Shown: positions 4,375-33,922 of the stretch, one piece after another
How positions within the stretch are numbered: the stretch's first letter is position 1
How the letters are laid out: every line of letters starts with the position of its first letter
The notes under the pieces: generated by a model
Told to the model about the DNA's origin: nothing
Seen by the model: the letters and a program-made list of their open reading frames with translations, nothing else
Database searches by the model: none
Assembly: GCF_009799805.1 (NCBI RefSeq)
Contig: NZ_CP047050.1
Location: 1,316,001-1,380,000, forward strand
Source of the DNA: Myroides phaeus
GTDB lineage: Bacteria; Bacteroidota; Bacteroidia; Flavobacteriales; Flavobacteriaceae
Direction of reading: 5' to 3'
DNA: 64,000 nucleotides
Position numbers and translations under genes: made by a program

Positions 4375-4417
4375 GTGGTCTAACCTGGGCTCGAACCAGG
4401 GACCACCTGATTATGAG
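4375..4417 (-). other. attL: truncated tRNA(CAU) 3' half
   Basis: Reads on the minus strand as CTCATAATCAG followed by a variable region, a perfect T-arm (CCCTGGTTCGAGCCCAGG) and an acceptor 3' strand ending GACCAC. It lacks the D-arm and 5' acceptor strand, so it is not a working tRNA. Differences from 22137-22179 are two bases in the acceptor strand and three in the variable loop. The shared core ACCTGGGCTCG...CAGGGAC probably holds the crossover. Confidence 0.75.
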
Positions 4418-4533
4418 AAAAATAATGAAGCTTTGCAGATAGTTGTATTTTGTTTCAAAGTTGTTGAATAACAGTATTATACGATTTTTTAAAAATATTT
4501 TCGTTTCATCCAATTGCACCATAAGTGCCTATT

Positions 4534-4553
4534 TGTTGTACGTATGTTGTACT
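4534..4553 (+). repeat. Left integrase arm-type site (copy 1 of 2)
   Basis: TGTTGTACGTATGTTGTACT, itself made of two TGTTGTAC units 11 bp apart (one helical turn). An identical 20-bp copy is at 22045-22064 in the same orientation. Position near both ends, and absence elsewhere as far as I could see, fit arm-type binding sites for the integrase N-terminal domain. It also lies in the leader of the integrase gene, so binding could repress the integrase. Confidence 0.65.
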
Positions 4554-4567
4554 CAAAACCAATTAAG

Positions 4568-5794
4568 ATGAAAGCAAGTTTAAAAATCGTACTAAAGAAA
4601 ACACAATTAAGTGATGGTACCTATCCAATCAATCTTAGAATTACTATTGATAGAAAGTCTAAGTTTTACAAAACACCTTATAGTGTAGCTCCTAAATTAT
4701 GGAATGAAAAGTTAGGTGAATTTACTTCAAAGTTTCCAAACTTTTTACAATCTAATAGAATATTGAACACGCTTAAACAAGAAGCATCAAAAATATTAGA
4801 TATAATGCTTGAGCAAGAAAAAAACTTTACCCTTGAAATATTTGATTCTTTGTTTCGACCTGAGAAAGTTGAAGAGTTAAAGTTTATAGATTTCTTTCAG
4901 AAGAGAATTGATCTGTTTAAGGAATCAGGTCAAATAAGTTCTTCGTATTCATATTACAATACCATTTGTGCTTTAAAGCGCTTTAAACCTATTGTAGTTC
5001 AATATGAGTTTGCACAAATTGATTATACTTTCTTGGTTGCATTCGAATCAGATTTAAGATCAAGAGGTTGTACGAATGGTGGTATTTCTTTATATATGCG
5101 TAATATTCGTGCTGTTTACAATTCTGCCATTAAATCTAAAATAGCATCTCAGGATAATTATCCTTTTAGAGATTATGTGATATCTAAGTTGAAATCAACT
5201 AAGATAAAGAAAGCCCTTACAAAAGAGGAATTACAGATGTTACTTGATTATGATTTTTCAGAAAACCTTGAAAGAGCTAAGGTGTTATATACTTATTTAT
5301 TTAGCTTCTTTTGTCGTGGGATGAATTTTACAGACATCGCTGAGTTAAAGTGGGATGATATAAACTCTAATCGCTTTAGTTATATCCGCAATAAAACGGG
5401 GGTAGCTATTAATGTAAAGATACCTGACAATAAAGATTTGGACACTATTCTGAACTATTTCAGAATCTATAGACCATTTGATACAAATTATATTTTTTCG
5501 ATTCTGGACAAGGATATAAGCCTATATACTAAAGAAGAGCTAAGGGCACGAAAAAGTAGTGTAAGAGATTATTATAACAAACAATTAGAATTGATAGCAA
5601 AAGATTGCGGTATTAAAACAAAAGTAACCTTCTATACCGCTCGTCATACTTTTGCGACTTTATCACTAAAAAAAGGTGTAAATCTATACATGCTTAAACA
5701 AGCCTTCGGTCATCAGTCTATTAAAACTACTGAAGCTTATGTGGAAGATTTTAGTAAGGATGAGTTAGATGAAGTGTTTGAGAGTGTGTTTTAG
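4568..5794 (+). CDS. Tyrosine recombinase (island integrase)
   Basis: About 408 residues: an N-terminal Arm-DNA-binding domain (about 1-90), a SAM-like core-binding domain (about 105-205) and the catalytic domain (about 215-408). Visible catalytic residues are Arg250 (FFCRGMNFTDIAELKW), Arg359 in YTARHTFAT, His382 in GHQSIKTTEAY and the nucleophile Tyr391. The first His of HxxR is Tyr356, a change seen in other Bacteroidota integrases. I prefer the ATG at 4568 over the frame start at 4514: the extra 18 residues are unlike the family and would cover the arm-type repeat. It should catalyse island integration and, with an excision factor, excision at the tRNA(CAU) gene. Confidence 0.92.
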   Translation: MKASLKIVLKKTQLSDGTYPINLRITIDRKSKFYKTPYSVAPKLWNEKLGEFTSKFPNFLQSNRILNTLKQEASKILDIMLEQEKNFTLEIFDSLFRPEKVEELKFIDFFQKRIDLFKESGQISSSYSYYNTICALKRFKPIVVQYEFAQIDYTFLVAFESDLRSRGCTNGGISLYMRNIRAVYNSAIKSKIASQDNYPFRDYVISKLKSTKIKKALTKEELQMLLDYDFSENLERAKVLYTYLFSFFCRGMNFTDIAELKWDDINSNRFSYIRNKTGVAINVKIPDNKDLDTILNYFRIYRPFDTNYIFSILDKDISLYTKEELRARKSSVRDYYNKQLELIAKDCGIKTKVTFYTARHTFATLSLKKGVNLYMLKQAFGHQSIKTTEAYVEDFSKDELDEVFESVF

Positions 5795-6130: not shown

Positions 6131-6164
6131 AAAACCCTTTAAACATTAATGTTTAAAGGGTTTT
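6131..6164. terminator. Perfect palindromic terminator
   Basis: AAAACCCTTTAAACATT followed by its exact reverse complement AATGTTTAAAGGGTTTT: 17-bp arms without spacer, ending in T-rich sequence. Placed 5 bp after the tRNA-like remnant, so probably its original terminator. Confidence 0.7.
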
Positions 6165-6599: not shown

Positions 6600-7205
6600 T
6601 TATGTAAATAAATTCGAATTATTCTTCACAAAACTTGTAACAGTTAATCTATGAACTCCTAAAATCCGACCTATAGCGCTATAAGAAACATTCTTATCTA
6701 GAAGTTCTTTAATCTTCTTTTCTTGACCTGTTAATTTCGTTTTAGCAGACTTACTTCCTACAGGACGACCAAGAATAACTCCTTCAGCTTTTTTACGTGC
6801 TAAAGCTTCTTTTGTGCGTTGTGAGATTAGATTTCTTTCAATCTCAGCAGATAATCCAAAGGCAAAGGCTAAAACTTTTGAATTAATGTCACTTCCTAAA
6901 CGATAATTATCTTTAATTGTCCAAACTTGTATATCACGATTCATGCACTCGTTTAAAACTCCCATAATCATTAATAGGTTACGTCCAAGACGTGACAGTT
7001 CTGAACAAATAAGAATATCATCCTTTTTCATTTTTTTAAGAAGCTTTCCTAACTTTCGATCATCGACTTGTTTCGAGCCTGAAATAGTTTCCTCTATCCA
7101 ACGGCTAACTATAATGTTTTGCTTTTCACAAAAATGGTTGATTTCAAATCGTTGATTCTCTACCGTTTGTTTGTCGGTACTTACTCTAATATATCCGTAT
7201 ATCAT
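6600..7205 (-). CDS. Serine recombinase, Mpi/Hin-type DNA invertase
   Basis: A 201-residue small serine recombinase. Residues 1-135 are the resolvase/invertase catalytic domain: Ser9 in YGYIRVSTDKQTVENQR is the nucleophile, and ELSRLGRN and the E-helix AEIERNLISQRTKEAL are intact. A linker with GRPVGS leads to a C-terminal helix-turn-helix (YSAIGRILGVHRLTVTSFV). Length and motifs fit the DNA invertase group, in particular the Bacteroides Mpi type that flips many promoters. Its gene begins 84 bp from the left arm of a 21-bp inverted repeat (7289-7309 / 9046-9066) that frames the restriction specificity cassettes, so it is the obvious candidate to flip that segment. Confidence 0.93.
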   Translation of the reverse strand: MIYGYIRVSTDKQTVENQRFEINHFCEKQNIIVSRWIEETISGSKQVDDRKLGKLLKKMKKDDILICSELSRLGRNLLMIMGVLNECMNRDIQVWTIKDNYRLGSDINSKVLAFAFGLSAEIERNLISQRTKEALARKKAEGVILGRPVGSKSAKTKLTGQEKKIKELLDKNVSYSAIGRILGVHRLTVTSFVKNNSNLFT

Positions 7206-7287
7206 ATTGTGTAAATTTTATACAAAAATGGTTTAAAATAAACACTTACTGACTAAAATAAATATAGACATTTAATATAACTGTAAA

Positions 7288-8199
7288 ATGAGCATTTATT
7301 TTGAACAATATTATAATATTTCATTTTTTAATACCTCTGGTAGTTGGATTGTTTTAAGTGAAATTGAGCAACGTATAAAAGCTAAAATTGAAGCTGTTGG
7401 AATACCATTAAAAGATTGGGATATTAATATTTATAGAGGAATACTTACAGGATATAATGAAGCGTTTATTATTGATGGCAAGAAGAAAGATGAGCTTATA
7501 GCTTCTGATCCAAAATCTGCTGAAATTGTACGGCCGTTACTTAGAGGACGTGATATTAAGCGTTATTCTTATGAATTTGCTGATTTATACATAATTACAA
7601 CTTTCCCAAGTTTAAAAATAGACATTGAGCAATATCCTGCTGTAAAAGAGCACCTTATGAGTTTTGGGTATGATAGATTAAAACAAACTGGAGAGAAAGG
7701 GAGTAGAAAAAAGACTAATAATCAATGGTTTGAAACTCAAGATACGATAGCTTATTGGGAGGATTTTTCTAAACAGAAAATTGTATATATTGAAATAATG
7801 ACTGACAATCCAGATGAAGGTTATGAATTTCCTTGCTTTTCATATGATGAAGAAAAAAGTATTGCTTTAAATACTGCATACGTCATGACCGGTGATATTA
7901 AAGAATTAAAGTATATTTTAGGTGTATTAAATTCAAAATTAGGCAAACAGCTTGTTAAATATTATGCTTTACAATTACAACAAAGACAATACAGAATGTT
8001 GAGTCAGTATGTCTCTAATTTTCCATTACCAAAATTAGATTATACAGAATATTGTTTTTTTGACAATTTAATCACTGATATTTTGGAAAGAAAAAAAAAT
8101 AAGCAAGACTTTAAAGAGTTGGAGGAAATTATAAAAAACAAAGTATATAATATCTTTAATTTAAATCAAGAAGAAATAGATTTTATTGAATTTCAATAA
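7288..8199 (+). CDS. Silent alternative specificity cassette of a type IIG restriction enzyme
   Basis: 303 residues homologous to the last 294 residues of the enzyme on the opposite strand (8183-11920). Both begin (M/L)SIYFEQ, share a conserved block (SWIVLSEIEQRI, DPKSAEIVRPLLRGRDIKRY), then diverge strongly over about 130 residues where the target-recognition part should lie, and end alike (DFIEFQ versus GFIEIQ). There is no methyltransferase or nuclease domain, so alone it should be inactive. Its start codon overlaps the 21-bp inverted repeat by one base. Inversion would fuse it in frame to residue 951 of the enzyme. It ends tail-to-tail with that gene, overlapping it by 17 bp. Whether it is translated as a free protein in this state is unknown. 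Confidence 0.85.
   Translation: MSIYFEQYYNISFFNTSGSWIVLSEIEQRIKAKIEAVGIPLKDWDINIYRGILTGYNEAFIIDGKKKDELIASDPKSAEIVRPLLRGRDIKRYSYEFADLYIITTFPSLKIDIEQYPAVKEHLMSFGYDRLKQTGEKGSRKKTNNQWFETQDTIAYWEDFSKQKIVYIEIMTDNPDEGYEFPCFSYDEEKSIALNTAYVMTGDIKELKYILGVLNSKLGKQLVKYYALQLQQRQYRMLSQYVSNFPLPKLDYTEYCFFDNLITDILERKKNKQDFKELEEIIKNKVYNIFNLNQEEIDFIEFQ
7289..7309 (+). repeat. Left arm of the 21-bp inverted repeat (inversion site)
   Basis: TGAGCATTT...TTGAACAAT, 21 bp, perfectly repeated in inverse orientation at 9046-9066, with mismatches immediately on both sides. Upstream of it the two loci are unrelated; downstream they encode homologous protein. It shows an imperfect TGnnCA-N7-TGnnCA dyad around an AT-rich centre, as serine recombinase crossover sites do. 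Confidence 0.85.
7455..7472 (+). repeat. Inner 18-bp inverted repeat, left copy
   Basis: TAATGAAGCGTTTATTAT (encoding NEAFII) is the exact reverse complement of 8883-8900. Surrounding DNA of the two cassettes is clearly more diverged. It could be a second crossover point or a trace of gene conversion. Confidence 0.6.
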
Positions 8200-8201
8200 A
8201 A
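8181..8201. repeat. Palindrome at the tail-to-tail junction of the two cassettes
   Basis: TTTTATTGAA-T-TTCAATAAAA, 10-bp arms around one base. It contains both stop codons of the convergent cassettes and lies within 15 bp of the midpoint of the 7289-9066 segment. It is the natural result of two homologous gene ends facing each other, and may also stop transcription from both sides. Confidence 0.7.
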
Positions 8202-11200
8202 CCTATTTCTGTCCTTTCTTCAATTGTAACATCATATAAATCAAAAATAATGTTATCAACTTGAATCTCAATATTTGTAGTTTTTTTATTGTCAGTTTTT
8301 AAGGATTGTATATTTAAAATTAATTTTTCAAATTGTTGATTAATTTCGTCTGTAACTTTTAAAACTGTTATTTTATCGAAAAACACTTTACTTAATTCCC
8401 TTGTGCCTCCCTGTAGTTCAGGGAAATTATCTCTAAAACAATATTTGAATAATGAAGAGTTTAAAAACGCAGTTAAAAACGCTATTTTTTCACCTGTAAT
8501 AATAAAACATTTTTGATTTGTCAAAAAACCTTTGTCGTCATAAACAAATGGTAAAAATTTTGTCATATTAGGATATATTACTTTTGGTCTAGAAAAATCC
8601 TCCATATAAGCACAGTTCCTTAAATTATATGGAGTATCTCCTTTATCAGATCGTTTTTCTAATTGTGTATAATATTGATCCAAATGTTTTTTTATTGCTG
8701 AATAACCTTCTGTAAATACGCGTTTTAAGCTATTCTCTTTAATACCATTATGTGTGTTTATCAACCATAAATCCGCAAAATCATAACCATATCTTTTAAT
8801 GTCTCTGCCACGTAAAATAGGTCGTATAATTTCAGCACTTTTTGGATCTTCATCAATTAATTCTTTCCTCTTCTCACCAGTGATAATAAACGCTTCATTA
8901 AAGCCTGTTTTTATCCCATAATTGATGTTTATATCCCATTCTTTAAGAGGTGTGCCAATAGCTTCTATTTTGTCCTTAATTTGTTTTTCAATAGGAGAAA
9001 GCACAACCCAACTTTCGTTTGTTTTAAATTCGGTTTGGTGAGCAAATTGTTCAAAATAAATGCTCAAATTATTTAACACCTTTTCTTTGACAATACAAGC
9101 CTTGGTCTGTTGTCTATTTTTATCCTTAGCAAACATTAAAATATTGGTATCAACCGTAGCAGAATCAAATATCTGAATCCCTCCAAAATCAATGAGAATT
9201 AAAGGATCTGTAAAATCTATAAAATACTTTCGCAAACTTTCTCCATAAGCAGCTCGCATCCATTTATTGGAAGTAATAAAAATTAAAATTCCATTATTTC
9301 TCAAGATGTTGTTACCCAATTCATAAAACAAACTGTAAATATCTCCTGTACGAGCAAAAGTTAAGTAATTTAACCGTTGCAAGACATCGCTTGCTTTACC
9401 CATTTTTTGCAGTTGAATATATGGAGGATTACCAACAATTACATCAAATCCAATAAAATTACCTTCATTATCTAAAACTTCAGGAAATTCAAAGCGCCAT
9501 TCAAAAGCATCTTGATAAATTACATTATTTAAAATTTCTTCTTTTTCCGAAATTGCCTTATCTGCTTTCTGTTTTAGCTTTTTTAAATTATCTTTTTCCG
9601 CTTTTTTAATTTTTTCACCAAATAATTCTAAATTAATTAAACGTTGACGTTCAGTTTCATATTTGCTCGTTATTTTATCTATACCATCTTTTGCTTTATT
9701 AGATAATGTAGATTTAAAATTTGATTTAATAGTATCTATAATCTCTTGAACTTCTGTTTTTTTAGCTTTACTGTTCGTTTGTTTATACTCATTTACAGCT
9801 ATTTTATAATCTTCTATAGTGTAAGTAACTTCTTTATTTTTAAAAGCAGACTTTAAACCATCTTGCAATGAAAATCGACTTACTAACGAGTTTCCACACT
9901 TAATATTAATATCAATATTAGGAAGTGTTTGCAACTCTCCTTCTGAGGTGTAATAAGCATTTTTTAATAATTCGATCCACAAACGTAATCGACAAATATT
10001 TACTGAATTAGGATTGATATCTACTCCAAATAAACAATTTTCAATCACATTTTGTTTTTCATGAAAAAGTGTTTTTTGTATAGCTAAACTGTTAACATCA
10101 TTTCTCTGATATTCAAATAACTCTCCTTCATTATATGCAACATAAAGCTCATCATTTTCAATAGAAATCTCGCAAGGAATTCGATTTCCTTCCTCATTAC
10201 ACAAGATTTTTAATTCACTTTTAATTGAAATCACCTCATTTAAGGCTGATACTAGAAAGTGTCCAGACCCTACCGCTGGATCACAAATTTTTAAACTATT
10301 AATAGTTTGATTAAACTTAATTAAATCTGCTTTCTTGAAATATTGTGAGCAATAATCTTTTACATCTTCAAAAGTTTCAATAGTATCGTTATACTCTACT
10401 TTAAATTTATCAACAACCGCTTTTCTAATCGCCTCCTTACACATAAACATTGTGATGTAACCAGGCGTGTAAAAAGACCCGTCTTTATATCCATTAATTT
10501 TTTCAAAAATTAATCCTAAAACTGCTGCATTAATTAATGTTTTATTTTCTTGCTCATTTTCAAACTCTGTATTAGCATCCGCTGAGAAGTCGTAGGCTTC
10601 TAAAAAAAGAAAAATATACTGAAGTGTATTTAATTTTCCTTTTAAACGTTTACCATTAGCATTTTTTAATATTGTTGATGAGTAAATTTCCATTTCTTCA
10701 TCTTTAAGAGCAGTAATATCAAAGGTTTGCTTCTCTAATGCACTATGTTCAAAAAGACTACTATTTAGATAAGGTATATTTTTAAATTTTTCTTTATACT
10801 TAGGATGCCGTTCTGTCAGAGGCTTTGCCAATGCAGAAAAAAATAAGTCATTTAATGCATCAAAGCCATTTAAAAAACTAAAATTTAAAAAACGATACTC
10901 ATTAGAATTATTATAGCTAACTAATTGTGACTCTAGTAATTTAAGAAATAAAATTCTATTAATCCAATTTATACAAAGCTCTAAGCCAACTGCGAATGCT
11001 TTATCTTCCGCACCAGAAAAGCCTTTAACACGATGCAAATAATCTTTATCTTCTAATGTGAAAATTGTATTCTCTAGAAGTGAAGCATAATCACGTTGTT
11101 GTTCTGACTTACGAACAATTATTTTTTTAGAACTTTCTTTTACTTCTTCTAAGCCTATAATATGAAGTAATTCTTTATAAAAAGAATCATTCAATTTATT

Positions 11201-11920
11201 ACTATCATTTCCAAAGCTATGCCCTAATAAATGAACATTTGAAAACAACTTATAAATTTGAGTAATTTTAGCCTCTCTTAAATTATTTAATTCGATTTTA
11301 TCAAACTCTATATGAACAAAAGGTAATATATCTTGAATCTCTTTTATATACTTTGAGGCTATTTCATCATAAAAAAGTTCATTTTTAGAAGTATCTTTAA
11401 GTCCATCTCTAAACTCGGTGTATTCTTTAACTAGACTAGAGTTTTTATAAAATATATTATAAAAATCTTCTCCTTTGAAAAAAAACCATTCAAATCCATT
11501 TGTAATAATCAAATGCTTGATATTGTTATTCTTTTCATCAATACGTTCTCTTAAATAATATAAAAGTAATTCTTGAAGTGCTTTTTTGTTTAAATTATCC
11601 TTAGAGACAAACTCTGTTTTATTACTTGGCCTTTTTGCTTCAATAATTACCCCCACATCACTTTTTGCAGTTTCATCTAAATAAATAGCTAAATCAATAC
11701 GCCCTTTAGTATTAATGAGATTTTTTTGAAAAAAAGTATTTTGAAAAAATCGTTTAATTGGTTCTTTAAGATGTTCTTCACTCTCATTTTTACTATCACT
11801 AACCTCAATAGCTTCGATACAACTTAATAATTCCAATTTAAACTTGTCTATATCATTACGGAGTGGTTTAAATTTTCGATATGCGGGATTTAATGCTTTA
11901 GTAATTGATATTGAAGACAT
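8183..11920 (-). CDS. Type IIG restriction-modification enzyme, Eco57I-like, with switchable C-terminal specificity domain
   Basis: 1245 residues combining nuclease, methyltransferase and recognition functions in one chain. The N terminus has a PD-(D/E)XK-type nuclease motif (Asp76 in GRIDLAIYL, Glu94-x-Lys96 in GVIIEAKRPS). The methyltransferase carries SAM motif I (CDPAVGSGHFL, 546-556) and motif IV NPPY (831-834), typical of N6-adenine enzymes. Residues 952-1245 form the specificity region and begin exactly at the 21-bp inverted repeat (LSIYFEQ). An alternative version of this region is stored at 7288-8199. Because cleavage and methylation share one recognition domain, a flip would change both together. 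The enzyme looks intact. The target sequence cannot be predicted here. Confidence 0.92.
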   Translation of the reverse strand: MSSISITKALNPAYRKFKPLRNDIDKFKLELLSCIEAIEVSDSKNESEEHLKEPIKRFFQNTFFQKNLINTKGRIDLAIYLDETAKSDVGVIIEAKRPSNKTEFVSKDNLNKKALQELLLYYLRERIDEKNNNIKHLIITNGFEWFFFKGEDFYNIFYKNSSLVKEYTEFRDGLKDTSKNELFYDEIASKYIKEIQDILPFVHIEFDKIELNNLREAKITQIYKLFSNVHLLGHSFGNDSNKLNDSFYKELLHIIGLEEVKESSKKIIVRKSEQQRDYASLLENTIFTLEDKDYLHRVKGFSGAEDKAFAVGLELCINWINRILFLKLLESQLVSYNNSNEYRFLNFSFLNGFDALNDLFFSALAKPLTERHPKYKEKFKNIPYLNSSLFEHSALEKQTFDITALKDEEMEIYSSTILKNANGKRLKGKLNTLQYIFLFLEAYDFSADANTEFENEQENKTLINAAVLGLIFEKINGYKDGSFYTPGYITMFMCKEAIRKAVVDKFKVEYNDTIETFEDVKDYCSQYFKKADLIKFNQTINSLKICDPAVGSGHFLVSALNEVISIKSELKILCNEEGNRIPCEISIENDELYVAYNEGELFEYQRNDVNSLAIQKTLFHEKQNVIENCLFGVDINPNSVNICRLRLWIELLKNAYYTSEGELQTLPNIDINIKCGNSLVSRFSLQDGLKSAFKNKEVTYTIEDYKIAVNEYKQTNSKAKKTEVQEIIDTIKSNFKSTLSNKAKDGIDKITSKYETERQRLINLELFGEKIKKAEKDNLKKLKQKADKAISEKEEILNNVIYQDAFEWRFEFPEVLDNEGNFIGFDVIVGNPPYIQLQKMGKASDVLQRLNYLTFARTGDIYSLFYELGNNILRNNGILIFITSNKWMRAAYGESLRKYFIDFTDPLILIDFGGIQIFDSATVDTNILMFAKDKNRQQTKACIVKEKVLNNLSIYFEQFAHQTEFKTNESWVVLSPIEKQIKDKIEAIGTPLKEWDININYGIKTGFNEAFIITGEKRKELIDEDPKSAEIIRPILRGRDIKRYGYDFADLWLINTHNGIKENSLKRVFTEGYSAIKKHLDQYYTQLEKRSDKGDTPYNLRNCAYMEDFSRPKVIYPNMTKFLPFVYDDKGFLTNQKCFIITGEKIAFLTAFLNSSLFKYCFRDNFPELQGGTRELSKVFFDKITVLKVTDEINQQFEKLILNIQSLKTDNKKTTNIEIQVDNIIFDLYDVTIEERTEIGFIEIQ
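8883..8900 (-). repeat. Inner 18-bp inverted repeat, right copy
   Basis: ATAATAAACGCTTCATTA, exact reverse complement of 7455-7472, within the conserved NEAFII stretch of the expressed specificity domain. Confidence 0.6.
9046..9066 (-). repeat. Right arm of the 21-bp inverted repeat (inversion site)
   Basis: Exact reverse complement of 7289-7309. In the enzyme it encodes codons 952-958 (LSIYFEQ), read in the same frame as the silent cassette, so inversion keeps the reading frame. It is located right after the methyltransferase domain. Confidence 0.85.
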
Positions 11921-12209: not shown

Positions 12210-13292
12210 ATGAAAAAAACAATTGGAAAACCAGAAAATTGGCAAGATTTTGAATCACTTTGTAAAAAACTTTGGGGGGAAATTTGGGCTATACCCAATA
12301 AAATTAAAAAAAATGGTCGTTTAGGTCAAGAACAAGCTGGTGTAGATGTATATGGAATTCCAAAAGGTGAAGAAAAGTATTGGGGAATTCAAGCAAAAGG
12401 GAAGGATGATTATTCGAAAGCGAAATTAACAGAAACAGAAATATACACTGAAATTGAAAAAGCAAAGAAATTTAAGCCTAATCTTGGAGTTTATATAATA
12501 GCTTCAACAACTAACAAAGACGCAAGGATAGAAGAATTTATCAGAATAAAAGATTTAGAAAATCAAGAGGCTGGTTCTTTTGAAATTTTATTGTTTTGCT
12601 GGGAAGATATTGTCGATTTATTAGAAGAAAATAAAGATACTTATAATTGGTATTTAACTGGAATTAATCAAAAAGATAAATTCGATTTCAAAGTTTCTTT
12701 TAATAATTTTGATGAAAGTCTTACTTTAAACCCAATTCTTGAAAAGACTATTATTAAGTATAAATTATCCAATGAAAGTAGCAATGACTTTTTTAATAAA
12801 AGTCTAATAAAGTCTATTCCTGAATTCAGAATCGAATCACTATTTTATTCAAATAAAATAAATAAATCTTGGTGTAGTTTTGATTTAATTATGGAAAATA
12901 TAGGTGCTGTAGTCATTGAAGACTGGATGTTAATTATAAAATTTATAAGAGGTGTTTCAAGTCTTGATACAGGTTCGTTTCTATCTCCAAGATTATCTCT
13001 AACAGATTATGTTGATGATGAAAATAAGACAATAACTTATAGACCAAAAGATAATAAACCTTTGATTCAAAAGGATAATAAATATTTTGAAATTTCATTG
13101 CTTCCTGATGTAGAATCTGATAGTATTGTAATTGAGTGGGAATTGTTAGCAAGGGACTTTAATCGAAAAGAAATAGTTGAAATTAATATTGAACCAGAAT
13201 ATATTGAAGAAATAAAGTTTGAAGAAGTAAAATTAGAGTCACAATTAATGGAAGATTCTGTTGTTATTAGCTATTATATAGTTGAAAAATAA
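12210..13292 (+). CDS. PD-(D/E)XK nuclease-domain protein, possible defence effector
   Basis: 360 residues. The first 150 look like a restriction-endonuclease fold: WQDFESLCKKLW at the start, GVDVYGIP, then YWGIQAKGK, which gives an Asp...(Gln-x-Lys) arrangement as in Mrr-like and related nucleases, and LGVYIIASTT. The remaining 200 residues are a beta-rich domain I do not recognise. It lies beside the restriction enzyme on the opposite strand, in the cargo part of the island, which suggests a DNA-targeting or antiphage role. The region upstream (11921-12209) is AT-rich and without other genes. Nuclease activity is inferred from motifs only. Confidence 0.65.
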   Translation: MKKTIGKPENWQDFESLCKKLWGEIWAIPNKIKKNGRLGQEQAGVDVYGIPKGEEKYWGIQAKGKDDYSKAKLTETEIYTEIEKAKKFKPNLGVYIIASTTNKDARIEEFIRIKDLENQEAGSFEILLFCWEDIVDLLEENKDTYNWYLTGINQKDKFDFKVSFNNFDESLTLNPILEKTIIKYKLSNESSNDFFNKSLIKSIPEFRIESLFYSNKINKSWCSFDLIMENIGAVVIEDWMLIIKFIRGVSSLDTGSFLSPRLSLTDYVDDENKTITYRPKDNKPLIQKDNKYFEISLLPDVESDSIVIEWELLARDFNRKEIVEINIEPEYIEEIKFEEVKLESQLMEDSVVISYYIVEK

Positions 13293-22044: not shown

Positions 22045-22064
22045 TGTTGTACGTATGTTGTACT
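22045..22064 (+). repeat. Right integrase arm-type site (copy 2 of 2)
   Basis: TGTTGTACGTATGTTGTACT, identical to 4534-4553 and in the same orientation, about 73 bp from the 3' end of the intact tRNA that marks the right junction. Confidence 0.65.
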
Positions 22065-22137
22065 GATGAAGTGAAACGAGAAAAAAGGGCATAAAAAAAG
22101 CACCTATTTTACAATAGATGCTTCTTTGAAATTTTAG

Positions 22138-22211
22138 TGGTCCCACCTGGGCTCGAACCAGGGACTTACTGATTATGAGTCAGTTACTCTAACCAACTGA
22201 GTTATAGGACC
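22138..22211 (-). tRNA. tRNA with CAU anticodon (Met or Ile2), island attachment site
   Basis: 74 nt. Acceptor GGTCCTA / TGGGACC, discriminator A, anticodon loop CTCATAA with stem ACTGA/TCAGT, T-arm CCTGGTTCGAGCCCAGG. CCA is not encoded (ACT follows). CAU may mean elongator Met or, after lysidine modification, Ile; I cannot decide by eye. Its 3' half, 22137-22179, is attR of the island. Confidence 0.9.
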
Positions 22212-28998: not shown

Positions 28999-30074
28999 TG
29001 TATCGATTACAAATACAAAAGTTAGCTTTAGAAATAGAAGAGCATTACAGCGATTATGATCGTTGTATTGCTTTGTTACAGCAAGCAATTCAAATTGCGG
29101 ATAAACACAATGATCTGGATTGGGGAGTTGATTTACGCAGTTATTTAATAAGAAAAGAAAGTGCTACGTCTATGTGTATTCATAGTCCGGCTGCTTTTGC
29201 TTGGATCTTAAATGTGTGTGATGAATATCCTGAGGAGTTTTCAGATGCTGAGTTTTTAGGTTTATATGAGTGGATGCTTGGAGCAGTTAATTGTAATACA
29301 GATATTCCTTTAGAACACACCCAAACTGTAGCGCTTGATTTAGAAAGGCGTTTAGAGAAAAACGGAATGAGTAAACGAGGGCTATACTTTTGTTTAGCTG
29401 AATTTGCTCAGAATAGAGGAGATGTCGCAAAAGGATGTGAGTATATAGATTTAGCAAAACTTGAACCTAAAGAAGATGATGAAGATGAGGTGGTAGAGTA
29501 TGATTATTCTGTAGAAAGGGCATCTATTATAGGAGACTTTGAAGAGGCTATATATTTAGCCAATCAAATGGAACTAAAGAAGCTTTCTGCATTTTCATTG
29601 CCTTTTGAAAGCTATTGTGCAATGACCTATTTTATGGCAAGAAGAGGAGATAGTCGTGCTTCTATTTATTTAGAAAAAGCTAAGGAAGCATTTTATAAGG
29701 TAGAGGGAGTAAATAGTTCGATGTTGTTTAGTATGACAAGGTTTATTTACACACTACACTTGTTAGAAGACGAACTTCTTTATAGTATGTTTGAATTAGT
29801 AGTAGATTGGCAAGTGGGGGCAGAGGACTTTTTACAAATGGCTTTTAGTCAACATATAGCTGCGGTATTTGTAAAAGGTGGTACAAGAGAATTAAAAATA
29901 TCTCCTAAACAGCCTTATTATAAACAAGAAGGAATTTATGATTTAGCAGTGTTAGCGGCTTATTACTATTCTATAGCAGAGTCATTTTCTACTAAATTCG
30001 ATCAAAGAAATGGCAATAATCATTGCTGTACTGAGCTGAAGCAATTACAAGAAGAAAACCAACCAAAAAAATAA
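28998..30074 (+). CDS. Unknown-family paralogue 1 of the HSP90 operon
   Basis: 358 residues. Helical, cytoplasmic, no recognised domain. It shares with the next two genes a common frame: IQIADKHNDLDWGVDLRSYL near the start, FAWILNVCDE, LYEWMLG, then a helical middle part and a C-terminal signature DLAVLAAYYYSIAESFSTKFDQRNGNN. The helix pairs look TPR-like. The start overlaps the HSP90 stop (TAATG). Probable role: partner or client adaptor of the HSP90-like protein (inference from coupling only). This copy is the most diverged of the three, with Leu in place of Ile in NDIDWG and a longer acidic segment (EPKEDDEDEVVEYD). Confidence 0.65.
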   Translation: MYRLQIQKLALEIEEHYSDYDRCIALLQQAIQIADKHNDLDWGVDLRSYLIRKESATSMCIHSPAAFAWILNVCDEYPEEFSDAEFLGLYEWMLGAVNCNTDIPLEHTQTVALDLERRLEKNGMSKRGLYFCLAEFAQNRGDVAKGCEYIDLAKLEPKEDDEDEVVEYDYSVERASIIGDFEEAIYLANQMELKKLSAFSLPFESYCAMTYFMARRGDSRASIYLEKAKEAFYKVEGVNSSMLFSMTRFIYTLHLLEDELLYSMFELVVDWQVGAEDFLQMAFSQHIAAVFVKGGTRELKISPKQPYYKQEGIYDLAVLAAYYYSIAESFSTKFDQRNGNNHCCTELKQLQEENQPKK

Positions 30075-30078
30075 AAGG

Positions 30079-31140
30079 ATGAGTTATAATTTAGAGATTC
30101 AAAAGATTTTATTAAAGCTGGATGATTTGCAGAATTTTTCAGATAGAGTAAAGGCTTTAAAGGAGGCAATTGCAATTGCAGATAAACATAATGATATAGA
30201 TTGGGGGTTTGATTTGCGTTTGGACTTAATTAGACAAGAGCGCAATACTTCTAAATGTGAGGAGAGTTTTCCTGCGTTTGCTTGGATTTTAAACGCAAGT
30301 GATGAAAATGACGACTACTTTGATGAGGCTGATTTTTTATGGGAATATAAATGGATGTTTTGTTCTGCTTACCGCAGTTCAGCTATTCCAATGGAGCAGG
30401 TTTTGGAGATAGGAGAAGATTTGAAACGCCGTTTAGTTAAGAATGGTTTTAGTCTTCGCGCTTATTATAATGTTATGACAGGTTTGTCATTACATCTTAG
30501 AGATTATAAAAAGGCACAAGAGTACATTGATTTAGCTGATGCTGAAATCATAGATGATATGACTAATTGTCCGGCTTGTGAATTAGATACAAAGGTAGAA
30601 ACGTTATTGTATCAAGGATTTGTTGAAGAGTCTCTAATCAAAGCTCAAGATTTGATTAATAAAAAACTGACGTGTTATTCAATGCCTTTTCAAACATTTT
30701 GCTGTTTTGCTTATTGGTTAGAACAAGCAGGAGATGATAGAGCCAGTATCTATTTTGACAAAGCAATGGAGGAATATCACGCACACGATCAATATGATAG
30801 TTCTGTTGGGTATTCAATGGGACTATTAGTTGCTTATATGCACAAAAAGAATCATCCAGATACTTGGTCATTTTTTGAAAAGATTGCAGATTGGCAATTA
30901 GGAGCAGAGGATTTACATATTTTTAATTTCGCTAAGTATATGGCACCACTTATGAAAAATGGTGGTAAACAAAGACTGGAGTTGTCTTCACTACTTCCAT
31001 ATTATCAAGAAAGCGGTGAATATGATTTATCTGAACTATATGTTTATTTTAAAGATATAGCTTATGACTATGCTAATCGTTTTGATCAGCGTAATGGTAA
31101 TGACAATTTTAAAACAGAAGTTGACGAAATGTTAACTTAG
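30079..31140 (+). CDS. Unknown-family paralogue 2 of the HSP90 operon
   Basis: 353 residues. Begins MSYNLEIQKILLKLDDL, followed by the family signature IAIADKHNDIDWGFDLRLDL, FAWILNASDENDDYF and EYKWMF; the end is YDYANRFDQRNGNDNF. Helical throughout, no signal peptide. Lies 4 bp after paralogue 1, so it belongs to the same operon, and is followed by a good terminator. The strongly conserved DWGFDLRL and RFDxRNGN stretches are the best candidates for binding surfaces. Function unknown. Confidence 0.65.
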   Translation: MSYNLEIQKILLKLDDLQNFSDRVKALKEAIAIADKHNDIDWGFDLRLDLIRQERNTSKCEESFPAFAWILNASDENDDYFDEADFLWEYKWMFCSAYRSSAIPMEQVLEIGEDLKRRLVKNGFSLRAYYNVMTGLSLHLRDYKKAQEYIDLADAEIIDDMTNCPACELDTKVETLLYQGFVEESLIKAQDLINKKLTCYSMPFQTFCCFAYWLEQAGDDRASIYFDKAMEEYHAHDQYDSSVGYSMGLLVAYMHKKNHPDTWSFFEKIADWQLGAEDLHIFNFAKYMAPLMKNGGKQRLELSSLLPYYQESGEYDLSELYVYFKDIAYDYANRFDQRNGNDNFKTEVDEMLT

Positions 31141-31157
31141 CGTTTTTACAATATTGC

Positions 31158-31190
31158 AAAGGCAAGTGGTTTTTTCTGCTTGCCTTTTTT
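31158..31190 (+). terminator. Terminator of the Sel1-HSP90 operon
   Basis: AAAGGCAAG ... CTTGCCTTT stem followed by a T-run. Confidence 0.8.
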
Positions 31191-31249
31191 AATAGGATTA
31201 ATATAATAACTTTAGACATTAAGAGGTTAAAAGTGATAAGAATAAATAT

Positions 31250-32329
31250 ATGAGTTATACACTGGATATACAGAAAATAGTTTTAAAGATTAATGAAACA
31301 AAGGTTATAGCTGATCAATTGGTGTTAATTAAAGAGGCTATTGCCATTGCGGATAAACACAATGATATTGATTGGGGATTTGATTTAAGATTGTTGTTGA
31401 TAAATACAGAGAACCATACGCCACGTACGTCTTTAAGTTATCCTGCTTTTACTTGGATTTTAAATACAAGTGATAGCAATGAAGGATATTTTGAAGAGAA
31501 AGACTTTTTATATGAATATAAGTGGATGTACGCTATTTCATCGGGGTCTACAGCTATTACCAAAGAACAATTAAAGGAGATAGGAGATGATTTTCATAAA
31601 CGTTTGTTGAAAAATGGATATAGCAGTCGTGGATATTACCACATTTTAGCTATTTGGTACCAGCATTTACGAGAGTATGACAAAGCAATGGAAATAGTTA
31701 ATTTAATGGGGGAGGAGTTGGTTGACGAATTAAGTGATAATCCTCCTTTTGAACACGCTATAAAGACGTATAATCTTTTAGCTCAAGGGAAGTTTGAAGA
31801 GGCAAAAATAGCAGCACGAGATCTGTTTGCAAATCGCTTTGAGTTTATAGAGACCGCTTTTGAAACATATATGGTATTTGCTTATGAACATTTTATTCGT
31901 GGCAATGTGAATGAGGCACGTGAATATTTTGAGCTTGCTCAGTGTAATATGTCAGTATATGATGAGAATGATCCGATAACACATTTTAGATCACGTATTT
32001 TCTATATGTACTTATCGTGGCAGTTTGGAGGAGAAGAGTGTTGGGATGTCTTTGAGAAGTTTTGTATCTGGGAAAATGGAGCAGATAGTCATTATTCATT
32101 AATATTTACCAAACACGCTATGTGTCTTTTAAAAGAGGGAGGAACCAGGAAGTTTAACTTTCCAGTGTCGTTACCTTATTACCAAGAAAGTGGAGAGTAT
32201 GATTTGAAAGTGCTGTGTAATTATTTCAAAGACTGTGCTTTTGATTTGGTAGCTCGCTTTGATAATAGAAATGGGAATAATAATTTCACAAAAGAAGCAA
32301 ATCGACTTTTTGCTATACCACGCCTATAA
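31250..32329 (+). CDS. Unknown-family paralogue 3, outside the terminator
   Basis: 359 residues, closest in style to paralogue 2: MSYTLDIQKIVLKIN, IAIADKHNDIDWGFDLRLLL, FTWILNTSDSNEGYFEE, EYKWMY, and a C-terminal CAFDLVARFDNRNGNNNF. It is separated from the operon by a terminator and 110 bp, so it must have its own promoter or live on read-through. This looks like a recent tandem duplication with diverged middle parts, as expected of adaptor proteins with different partners. Function unknown. Confidence 0.65.
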   Translation: MSYTLDIQKIVLKINETKVIADQLVLIKEAIAIADKHNDIDWGFDLRLLLINTENHTPRTSLSYPAFTWILNTSDSNEGYFEEKDFLYEYKWMYAISSGSTAITKEQLKEIGDDFHKRLLKNGYSSRGYYHILAIWYQHLREYDKAMEIVNLMGEELVDELSDNPPFEHAIKTYNLLAQGKFEEAKIAARDLFANRFEFIETAFETYMVFAYEHFIRGNVNEAREYFELAQCNMSVYDENDPITHFRSRIFYMYLSWQFGGEECWDVFEKFCIWENGADSHYSLIFTKHAMCLLKEGGTRKFNFPVSLPYYQESGEYDLKVLCNYFKDCAFDLVARFDNRNGNNNFTKEANRLFAIPRL

Positions 32330-32389: not shown

Positions 32390-33922
32390 TTAAAATAAAC
32401 TTATTTGTCCTTCTTGGTCAAAAGAAGAGTTTTTCTTTTCTTTTTTTCTTTCTTTCTTAGGTTTGTTTACAATTGGTTCTGTAACAATTGTCTCTACGTC
32501 AAAGATTTCAATTTGCATAACATCTTTCGTATTAGGAGTGTTTTGGGTTCCTACTTCTGAAGTTATTTCCTCTTGTGGCTTGTCATCCACTAAAGGTAGT
32601 TCTGTTGCAGGTATTTCGAACAATGTAGCTTCACTTTCTATGGCTAAGTTGTCTTCTGCTACTAAAGGTTGCTCTATTGTCGTAATATCCTCTTGTGGCT
32701 TGTCGTCCACTAAAGGTAGTTCCGTTACAGGTATTTCAAACAAGGTAGCTTCATTTTCTATAGCTAAGTTGTCTTCTATTACTAAAGGTTGCTCTATTGC
32801 CGTAATATCCTCTTGTGGCTTGTTGTCTACTAAAGGTAGTTCTGTTGCAGGTATTTCGAACAAGGTAGCTTCACTTTCTATGGCTAAGTTGTCTTCTATT
32901 ACTAAAGGTTGCTCTATTGCCGTAATATCCTCTTGTGGCTTGTTGTCTACTAAAGGTAGTTCTGTTGCAGGTATTTCGAACAATGTCGTTTTATTCTGAA
33001 AAGACGGTTTAGTCTCTTTTTGTGCTAAATCATTTTCCTCTGCATTGATACCTTTTTTTGCAATATTAAAAAACTCGCTAAACTTAGAATCATTTAATGA
33101 TTGTTTCTCTATTGCCGCTGGACTTGGAGGACAATCAGAAGGAATAGAATCTTCTGCTTTTATAATTTCCCAATCCATTTTAGGGATTGTATTTTCATTT
33201 GTGAATTCAATAGAAAACAAATCTTTGTCTATCTCTTCTTGAATAGGTAAATTATCAAGTTCAAGTGTTTCCTCCCAGATAATAGCTTCTTGCTCTTCTT
33301 CTGTATCAACATCTGTTTGTGAACGACTATTGCTGTTTATAGGAGAGATATTTTCTTGAGGAGCTTCTGTGAATAAATTCAAATGAGTTTCATCCGTTAC
33401 TCCTTCATTAAAGTTTAGTGATTCAAAAGCAGCTGGCTCTAATGTTATTTCAACTTGTTGGTCAGTAGTTTCATTTACGAAAAGTTCAGTTTCAACAAGA
33501 TTAGTAGCAATAGCGGGAGTAGTAACCTCATCATTATGCTCAACATCAACTACAGCAAAATCTTCTTCTTTAGCAAAAATATCAACTTTGTTATGCAACT
33601 CATTGATAAGTCTTTTTATCCTTTTGATATGCGGGCTGTCGTTAAATAATTGTTTATTAAAAACAGCATCTAATAACTTATACAAAGAATAAGCTTCGTG
33701 GTATTTTAGAACTAAAGAATGTTTTTTGTTATGGTCAAGAATAGAAACCTGTTTGTGAATATTTTTTGCTTTCTCTTCCAACTTAGTAATTAGATCTTCT
33801 TTGGTGCTTATAAGCAAAGCATCTGTTACATTTTTTACAGCATAATCATCGGTTTGTTGTACCATTTTGATAACTGTAAGAAGAACATCATTATTTAATT
33901 TAAGTTGAATTTTTGCGATCAT
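32390..33922 (-). CDS. Acidic tandem-repeat protein with C-terminal clamp-binding-like motif
   Basis: About 510 residues from the ATG at 33922; the frame can be extended to a TTG at 33970 but the start MIAKIQLKLNNDV is more natural. Residues 1-125 are a helical domain (ISTKEDLITKLEEKAKNIH; YHEAYSLYKLLDAVF). Then follows a long acidic, probably unfolded part with about 3.6 copies of a 40-residue unit (ATLFEIPATELPLVD...IEQPLV.EDNLAIE). The tail is basic (KPKKERKKEKKNSS) and ends in GQISLF, like the QLSLF peptide by which many proteins bind the DNA sliding clamp. It may therefore act near replication or repair; this is an inference. Confidence 0.6.
   Translation of the reverse strand: MIAKIQLKLNNDVLLTVIKMVQQTDDYAVKNVTDALLISTKEDLITKLEEKAKNIHKQVSILDHNKKHSLVLKYHEAYSLYKLLDAVFNKQLFNDSPHIKRIKRLINELHNKVDIFAKEEDFAVVDVEHNDEVTTPAIATNLVETELFVNETTDQQVEITLEPAAFESLNFNEGVTDETHLNLFTEAPQENISPINSNSRSQTDVDTEEEQEAIIWEETLELDNLPIQEEIDKDLFSIEFTNENTIPKMDWEIIKAEDSIPSDCPPSPAAIEKQSLNDSKFSEFFNIAKKGINAEENDLAQKETKPSFQNKTTLFEIPATELPLVDNKPQEDITAIEQPLVIEDNLAIESEATLFEIPATELPLVDNKPQEDITAIEQPLVIEDNLAIENEATLFEIPVTELPLVDDKPQEDITTIEQPLVAEDNLAIESEATLFEIPATELPLVDDKPQEEITSEVGTQNTPNTKDVMQIEIFDVETIVTEPIVNKPKKERKKEKKNSSFDQEGQISLF
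32568..32995 (-). repeat. 120-bp tandem repeats inside a coding gene
   Basis: About 3.6 copies with an exact 120-bp period, few differences between copies, encoding the 40-residue units of the surrounding protein. The near identity implies recent expansion, and copy number may vary between strains. An open frame on the opposite strand across this array is a shadow. Confidence 0.9.

What the first reader, a model, noticed from the sequence alone, without database searches (positions are those of the whole stretch)
6600..11920. DNA-inversion switch that changes the specificity of a type IIG restriction-modification enzyme
Seen: a Mpi/Hin-type serine recombinase gene, then a promoterless copy of the C-terminal specificity domain (7288-8199), tail-to-tail with a complete 1245-residue type IIG enzyme (8183-11920). 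A perfect 21-bp inverted repeat (7289-7309 / 9046-9066) sits exactly where homology between cassettes begins; upstream DNA is unrelated. Both copies are read in the same frame (SIYFEQ), so flipping the 1.78-kb segment joins residue 951 of the enzyme in frame to the other cassette and stores the old one. Known: invertible hsdS genes of type I systems and Mpi in Bacteroides. Inference: because nuclease, methylase and recognition share one chain here, a single flip changes the cut site and the protecting methylation at the same time, with no orphan nuclease problem. A complete, island-borne, self-switching single-protein system of this kind is to my knowledge rarely described.
Basis: partly seen in the sequence, partly recalled or inferred. 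Interest (0 to 1): 0.92.

Follow-up and report, generated by a model that had tools for sequence, protein, structure and literature searches.

The report
Self-shuffling single-chain restriction enzyme gene
A bacterial DNA-cutting enzyme keeps a spare copy of its target-reading part next door, backwards, and a small recombinase can probably swap pieces between the two at short DNA sites hidden inside the gene, so one gene can produce several enzymes that probably read different DNA sequences.

Summary
A 1245-residue type IIG enzyme (8183-11920), an inverted spare copy of its C-terminal specificity domain (7288-8199) and an Mpi-family serine invertase (6600-7205) sit together on a 17.8-kb mobilizable island at a tRNA-Met gene. 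The 21-bp inverted repeat marks the start of cassette homology. Exchange happens in nature. Two related enzymes (P0013, P0065) carry the same cassette pair in reciprocal positions. A database protein (P0138) is the window's own spare cassette (161 residues) joined without a mismatch to the window's active C-terminus (139 residues). Across the family the cassettes carry three DNA sites whose codons, and even amino acids, are held far more strongly where Mpi is present. In 29 of 30 loci the two cassettes have complementary middle blocks, in random linkage with the preceding block. The device is therefore a multi-site module shuffler (four predicted states here, up to eight elsewhere), not a two-state flip. 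That Mpi catalyses it, and that each state reads a different target, are inferred. Type I hsdS shufflers are known. A 2023 survey (Milman et al., recalled, not readable here) reported type II R-M inversions, so I call it a new variant of a known kind.

The parts
6600..7205 (-). Mpi-family serine invertase (201 aa), the only relative found in the genome
   Evidence: NF009949 346 bits, cut-off 272; Resolvase PF00239; single match in G000
7206..7287 (.). intergenic gap between invertase start and spare cassette
   Evidence: gap of 86-97 bp in 13 of the 23 loci that the script called divergent
7288..8199 (+). inverted spare (silent) specificity cassette, 303 aa, blocks a'(YRG) b'(TFPS) c'
   Evidence: TaqI_C PF12950; 38% identical to the enzyme C-terminus; block types
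8183..11920 (-). type IIG restriction enzyme/methyltransferase, 1245 aa: DUF7149-DUF7814-Eco57I-TaqI_C
   Evidence: PDLC03612 1012 bits over 7-1236; Pfam; DPAVGSGHF at 547, NPPY at 831
7289..7309 (+). site S1, spare copy
   Evidence: perfect 21-bp inverted repeat; codon constraint
9046..9066 (-). site S1, active copy (from L952)
7528..7551 (+). site S2, spare copy; degenerate here (GTACGGCC against family ATACGACC)
8804..8827 (-). site S2, active copy (I1032-R1039); matches the family consensus
7758..7771 (+). site S3, spare copy, GGAGGATTTTTCTA
   Evidence: 14-bp exact match to the active copy in the same codon phase; crossover point of P0138
8590..8603 (-). site S3, active copy
4375..4417 (.). 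island left end: partial copy of the tRNA-Met 3' end
   Evidence: repeat D2 with 22137-22211; sequence read
4514..5794 (+). island tyrosine integrase
22137..22211 (-). tRNA-Met, island right end

Best explanation
The locus is a cis-encoded, multi-site DNA-inversion device that exchanges C-terminal modules of a type IIG enzyme with an inverted spare cassette. The Mpi invertase next to it recombines short matched sites embedded in the two coding sequences. At S1 (start of the specificity domain) the whole cassette is exchanged. At S3 (the EDFS motif) only the last block is exchanged. In many relatives S2 (the IIRPILRG motif) probably separates the first and second blocks. The S1 and S3 junctions keep the reading frame, so the products are full enzymes with nuclease, methylase and a new mix of recognition blocks, while the displaced blocks are stored in the spare copy. 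The window should have four states (S1 x S3), because S2 is degenerate in its spare copy; relatives with three intact sites could have eight. Shown from sequence: sites, frame, nucleotide-level constraint tied to Mpi, natural recombinants at S1 and S3 (one of them of this very locus), and module reassortment. Inferred: Mpi as catalyst, S2 as a true crossover site, and a different target for each block combination.
For: P0138 is a 296-residue stand-alone cassette from a 7,881-bp contig. Its first 161 residues equal the window's spare cassette and its last 139 equal enzyme residues 1107-1245, without mismatch, overlapping in EDFS, which the 14-bp S3 repeat encodes; the window does not encode it in any of six frames. 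Reciprocal positions: P0013 and P0065 have 97.8% identical bodies and 45% identical C-termini; the stand-alone cassette with P0013's contig length (P0309) is 99.0% P0065's C-terminus, and the one with P0065's contig length (P0201) is 98.6% P0013's. L006: body 97.9% to P0026, own active C-terminus 46%, spare cassette 97%. P0091 joins L008's active first and last blocks to L008's spare middle block (bodies 93%). 39 proteins with 98.7-100% identical bodies show 6 of 8 combinations of two alleles at three blocks; seven with one identical body show five. The ten highest of 272 codon-constraint columns all lie in S1, S2 or S3. In 36 Mpi-less homologues the key residues are mostly lost. In 6 of 30 loci the spare lacks S1, and all 6 active copies lack its AGC; the other 24 keep both. 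Middle blocks are complementary in 29 of 30 loci (0 of 20,000 shuffles reach this), first blocks in 22 of 24 (3 of 20,000), linkage phase 11:11.
Against: No reads, long-read data or methylomes were available. P0138's source field is blank, as for the window's own proteins, so its strain is unknown. S3 in this window is only 14 bp, and an 18-bp match at NEAFII (7455-7472) is longer, so S3 rests on P0138 and on the family. S2 codons agree between copies no better than controls (0.59), so S2 as a working site is weaker. Codon bias outside the sites reaches z 5.9. The 39-protein group comes from sources without names, mostly metagenome-like, where assembly could mix paths. A full-length enzyme reciprocal to P0138 was not seen in the listing (at roughly 92% identity it could be hidden in P0001's 90% cluster). 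The stand-alone search with the window's active cassette listed nothing above 87% identity, so S1 inversion of this very locus was not seen.
Confidence: 0.88

Rival explanations
1. A simple two-state switch: only S1 works, by Mpi, and the sharing of internal blocks is old history.
For: S1 is the longest repeat here (21 bp), and cassettes in reciprocal S1 positions exist.
Against: P0138 is an S3 recombinant of this locus without a mismatch; S3 codons are as constrained between copies as S1 (0.94 against 0.93); an identical body carries five block combinations.
Confidence: 0.08
2. Exchange is by general homologous recombination between two inverted, related cassettes, not by a site-specific enzyme.
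For: Some loci have long identical stretches between the copies (for example 183 bp in L037), and S2 shows no more identity between copies than controls.
Against: In the window the crossover fits a 14-bp repeat within cassettes that share 38% of amino acids. Site codons are held far more strongly where Mpi is present. S1 is lost when its partner is missing.
Confidence: 0.07
3. The spare cassette is a decaying duplicate, or a separately expressed specificity protein, and no exchange occurs.
For: It is an intact ORF with an ATG start in the window.
Against: Natural recombinants; the codon before the site is ATG in only 10 of the 27 spare copies with S1 read (duplicate L085 left out), so a start is not conserved; 33 of 57 scanned loci have Mpi and cassette matches on both strands.
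Confidence: 0.02

Closest known systems
Invertible hsdS loci of type I R-M systems (for example pneumococcal SpnIII/Cod, Mycoplasma pulmonis hsd)
   Same: Inverted spare specificity genes, several inverted repeats, combinatorial specificity modules, site-specific recombinase nearby (PMC4948785: abstract start in a search listing; otherwise recalled)
   Different: There the switched gene is a separate S subunit; here one chain carries nuclease, methylase and specificity, and the recombinase is an Mpi-type serine invertase.
Type II R-M genes with gene-altering programmed inversions (Milman, Yelin, Kishony 2023, doi 10.1093/nar/gkac1166)
   Same: Predicted and long-read-validated inversions that alter type II R-M genes (abstract recalled; not held; seen only as a citation)
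   Different: I could not check whether they saw this Mpi-linked family, the three embedded sites, or the complementary block pairs.
Master DNA invertase Mpi of Bacteroides fragilis
   Same: Same NCBI family (NF009949)
   Different: The known Mpi flips many promoters genome-wide (recalled); here one Mpi gene and one perfect pair of sites in the genome, inside coding sequences.
BREX PglX
   Same: Related adenine methylase with C-terminal specificity region; PglX structures are among the fold matches. PglX phase variation by inversion is recalled.
   Different: Enzyme scores 74 bits against a cut-off of 500 for BREX-1 PglX; no BREX gene was named among the 16 island proteins tested.
Phase-variable type IIG enzymes (Campylobacter Cj0031, Helicobacter)
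   Same: Single-chain R-M with variable output
   Different: Repeat-tract on/off switching or slow block movement, not inversion (a citation in PMC5903667; passages of PMC7379913; otherwise recalled).

Membership tests
Type IIG restriction enzyme | Nuclease, N6-adenine methylase and specificity domain in one chain | tested here: met
   PDLC03612 1012 bits over residues 7-1236; Eco57I and TaqI_C; IDLAIYL (75) ... EAK (94), DPAVGSGHF (547), NPPY (831) (motif meaning recalled)
Type IIG restriction enzyme | Cuts near and methylates an asymmetric target | not testable with these tools
   No activity data
Mpi-family serine invertase | Curated family score and resolvase domain | tested here: met
   346.1 bits against cut-off 272; PF00239 117.8 bits
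Mpi-family serine invertase | Catalyses inversion at its sites | not testable with these tools
   Only linkage and Mpi-dependent site conservation
Invertible specificity-cassette system | Inverted spare cassette with matched repeats in the same codon phase | tested here: met
Invertible specificity-cassette system | Alternative states found in related sequences | tested here: met
   (protein level; of these, DNA was at hand only for L006 and L008)
Invertible specificity-cassette system | Target specificity changes with state | not testable with these tools
   Inferred from TaqI_C homology; no methylomes
Invertible type I hsdS system | Separate hsdR, hsdM and hsdS genes | tested here: not met
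   Single-chain enzyme
BREX PglX | PglX family score; BREX neighbours | tested here: not met
   74.4 bits against cut-off 500; none named among the 16 island proteins tested

The most novel reading that the evidence does not exclude
A widespread family of type IIG enzymes has its specificity domain built from three interchangeable blocks whose borders are recombinase sites written into the protein code. The DNA site dictates the amino acids (AGC, CGA and GAG codons are largely fixed with Mpi, and the residues mostly gone without it). Each locus keeps one of each of two ancient block types in opposite positions and shuffles them, giving up to eight single-chain R-M specificities from one gene plus one spare.
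Probability: 0.6. Interest if true: 0.82.

Novelty: new variant of a known kind. Interest (0 to 1): 0.7.

Why it matters
A clone could carry several restriction specificities in one gene, each with its matching methylation, as a hedge against phages and as an epigenetic switch. Here it is carried on a mobilizable island, and relatives are found across Bacteroidota and in contigs labelled as other phyla. The natural block combinations are a ready-made set for learning which part of a type IIG specificity domain reads which bases. The locus also shows recombinase sites constraining codons and amino acids inside an enzyme.

Tried and rejected
Opposite orientation at the DNA level within the window's own genus: no other same-genus genome had a match (parts of the family and phylum), so protein databases were used. 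Viral contigs gave 1 locus (L076), with the same length and match span as L054 and presumed its twin, not compared. Plasmids: 241 records, all under 60% identity, not followed up. Phages: 26 records, none covering 80% of the query. S2 looked like a third perfect repeat in a few loci, but across 30 loci its codons agree no better than controls and it is perfectly identical in 5 of 30 (S1 14 of 24, S3 14 of 30, controls 0-4), so S2 is claimed with less weight. Single-linkage clustering merged the real types of blocks a and b, so signature-based types were used. The fold model (mean pLDDT 73.2, pTM 0.54) only confirmed the CamA/PglX/BseCI/MmeI/TaqI methylase relationship and was not used to place the sites. 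Residue labels are one lower than true enzyme numbering (checked); this report uses true numbering.

Rows dropped or doubled. L015, L042, L050, L051, L053, L055, L059, L060-L075 and rows with N were left out (distant, frameshifted or duplicate). L051, L055, L059 and rows with N left out; 8 CTDs on cut contigs counted apart as unknown; L083, L085 and L091 repeat L026, L006 and L031 (same first 40 residues), so three loci count twice among the 75 Mpi rows. Mpi absence in 33 of the 36 Mpi-less rows (those from loci L060-L111) was judged with about 1.5 kb of flank or less. L015, L043, L083, L085, L091 left out; L032 and L054 lost a copy because of N; those and L041, L056; 84 of 120 proteins had all three borders recognised; 90 of 120 and 226 of 239.

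Full report
What is there. The window holds an Mpi-family serine invertase (6600-7205, NF009949 346 bits, cut-off 272), an inverted spare specificity cassette (7288-8199) and a 1245-residue type IIG enzyme (8183-11920; PDLC03612 1012 bits; DUF7149, DUF7814, Eco57I, TaqI_C). The cassettes align from L952/M1 to their ends at 38% identity. A perfect 21-bp inverted repeat lies at the start of that homology, in the same codon phase in both copies. The genome has one Mpi gene and one perfect pair of these sites. The unit sits on an island bounded by a partial copy of the tRNA-Met 3' end (4375-4417) and the tRNA-Met gene itself (22137-22211), with integrase, relaxase, NikA-like protein and primase-like protein.

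How common it is. A scan of genome contigs gave 57 loci. Of these, 38 of 57 have an Mpi gene (at least 50% identity), 33 of 57 have Mpi and cassette matches on both strands, and 13 of 57 contigs end inside a cassette. The script put Mpi divergent from the spare copy in 23 of 34 loci and on the same strand in 11; L041 and L043 are held the other way round, so by my reading it is 25 and 9. Record titles include Flavobacteriia, Sphingobacteriia, Bacteroidales and MAGs labelled Campylobacteraceae, Opitutales, Akkermansia, Spirochaetes, Planctomycetaceae and an archaeon; MAG labels may be wrong. In the window's family, 17 of 299 genomes have a relative of the enzyme at E <= 1e-50, the window's own included.

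More than one site. Comparing active and spare copies showed repeated matches inside the cassettes as well as at their start. A codon test on 73 C-terminal domains from 41 loci (272 columns, mean z 1.23, SD 2.42) gave its ten highest values in three places. S1: AGC at S953, 98% observed against 17% expected, z 16.4. S2: CGA at R1033, 89% against 20%, z 14.4. S3: GAG at E1107, 100% of 64 against 30%, z 12.3. Elsewhere the highest value is z 5.9 (label 1000, true 1001). Control: with Mpi, AGC 51 of 52, CGA 61 of 71, GAG 65 of 65. In 36 Mpi-less homologues the residues themselves are mostly gone (S 1 of 34, R 1 of 36, E 8 of 35, of which GAG 2 of 8). Where a residue is kept, the codon is not (G1038 GGC 3 of 34 against 46 of 74; K1113 AAA 24 of 36 against 74 of 74). 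Mpi-less homologues are also more distant overall, which weakens this control somewhat. Within loci, same-residue codons agree 93% at S1, 94% at S3, 59% at S2, and 36-67% at seven control stretches. In 6 of 30 loci the spare copy lacks the first block, and all 6 active copies lack the AGC of S1 (L011 and L028 still resemble the site); the other 24 keep both.

Natural recombinants. P0013 (named Chryseobacterium sp.) and P0065 (unnamed) have bodies 933/954 identical and C-termini 45% identical. That they lie on the same contigs is inferred from equal contig lengths. Pedobacter L006: body 97.9% to P0026, active C-terminus 46%, spare cassette 97%. P0091 combines L008's active first and last blocks with L008's spare middle block (92, 98 and 99% identity), bodies 93% identical. 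For the window itself, P0138 is a stand-alone 296-residue cassette: residues 1-161 equal the window's spare, the last 139 equal enzyme residues 1107-1245, and the overlap is EDFS; the window does not encode it in any frame. The repeat that encodes the join is 14 bp, too short for ordinary assembly mix-ups (general knowledge). Among 120 full-length relatives listed, one body type (39 of the 84 that could be typed; bodies 98.7-100% identical) shows 6 of 8 combinations at three blocks, and seven proteins with one identical body show five. One of the 39 (P0069) has an odd C-terminal end. That group is unnamed and its sources look metagenomic, so assembly artefacts cannot be fully excluded. Elizabethkingia anophelis enzymes show a block exchange at S3.

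Complementary pairs. The middle block is one of two broad types (HNG, or TFPS/WHFP-like), the first block NYG or YRG. In 29 of 30 loci the two cassettes carry opposite middle types (0 of 20,000 shuffles reach this), and in 22 of 24 opposite first types (3 of 20,000), while the linkage phase is 11:11. The last block is of a different class in 30 of 30. Reciprocal exchange within a locus predicts this: one of each is kept and the phase is random. Selection against long identical inverted repeats could add to it. Shuffles ignore relatedness of the loci.

Mechanism. Shown from sequence: the sites, the frame, the Mpi-tied constraint and recombinants at S1 and S3. Inferred: Mpi as the catalyst, S2 as a true crossover (the a-b phase and P0091 speak for it; the poor match between copies speaks against it), and altered targets. 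The C-terminal region is homologous to the DNA-reading part of methylases with solved structures (BseCI, E 1.8e-6 for the C-terminus alone; CamA with the whole enzyme; fold matches to CamA, PglX, BseCI, MmeI and TaqI). In the window S2 is degenerate in the spare copy (GTACGGCC), so I predict four states.

Known and new. In ten paper searches no listed title or abstract start names an invertible type IIG gene. I then looked at passages of PMC11892184, PMC5903667 (also section 13), PMC5608340, PMC13076061, PMC7379913, PMC10939037, PMC11868660, PMC3874165 (12 of 29 places) and PMC12707154; none of the passages shown describes one. Milman et al. 2023 is not held; I recall that its abstract names type II R-M systems as a new inversion target. 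The kind is therefore known; the three-site, Mpi-linked, complementary-block form is, as far as I could check, a new variant.

Noticed in passing
4534-4553 and 22045-22064: Identical 20-bp repeat TGTTGTACGTATGTTGTACT just inside both island ends, perhaps integrase arm or regulatory sites.
   Followed up: no
12210-13292: Gene next to the enzyme with a weak Mrr-like nuclease match (E 0.0013, below cut-off), perhaps a second defence gene.
   Followed up: no
6131-6164: Perfect 34-bp palindrome between the integrase and the invertase (I24).
   Followed up: no
32562-32995 and 29085-31410: Overlapping 194-nt repeats at 120-bp spacing, and a 74-nt motif repeated about every 1.1 kb.
   Followed up: no
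L015 12500-15200: Elizabethkingia miricola locus with a 90% identical Mpi but a different C-terminal domain; its two copies share a 24-bp inverted repeat at another place. The invertase may serve a second cassette family.
   Followed up: partly
L020, L021, L051: Specificity cassettes 67-69% identical to the window's active one on enzyme bodies only about 30% identical, so cassettes seem to move between distant enzymes.
   Followed up: partly
L012, L016, L033, L034, L038, L040, L049: Second layout, mostly in Bacteroidales records: a more distant Mpi (67-70%) on the same strand as the spare cassette, 14-24 bp away.
   Followed up: no
L006 spare cassette, start near 4934: Its S1 has one T more than the active copy's S1, with the spare's upstream frame shifted accordingly; effect on the frame after a flip not worked out.
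   Followed up: no
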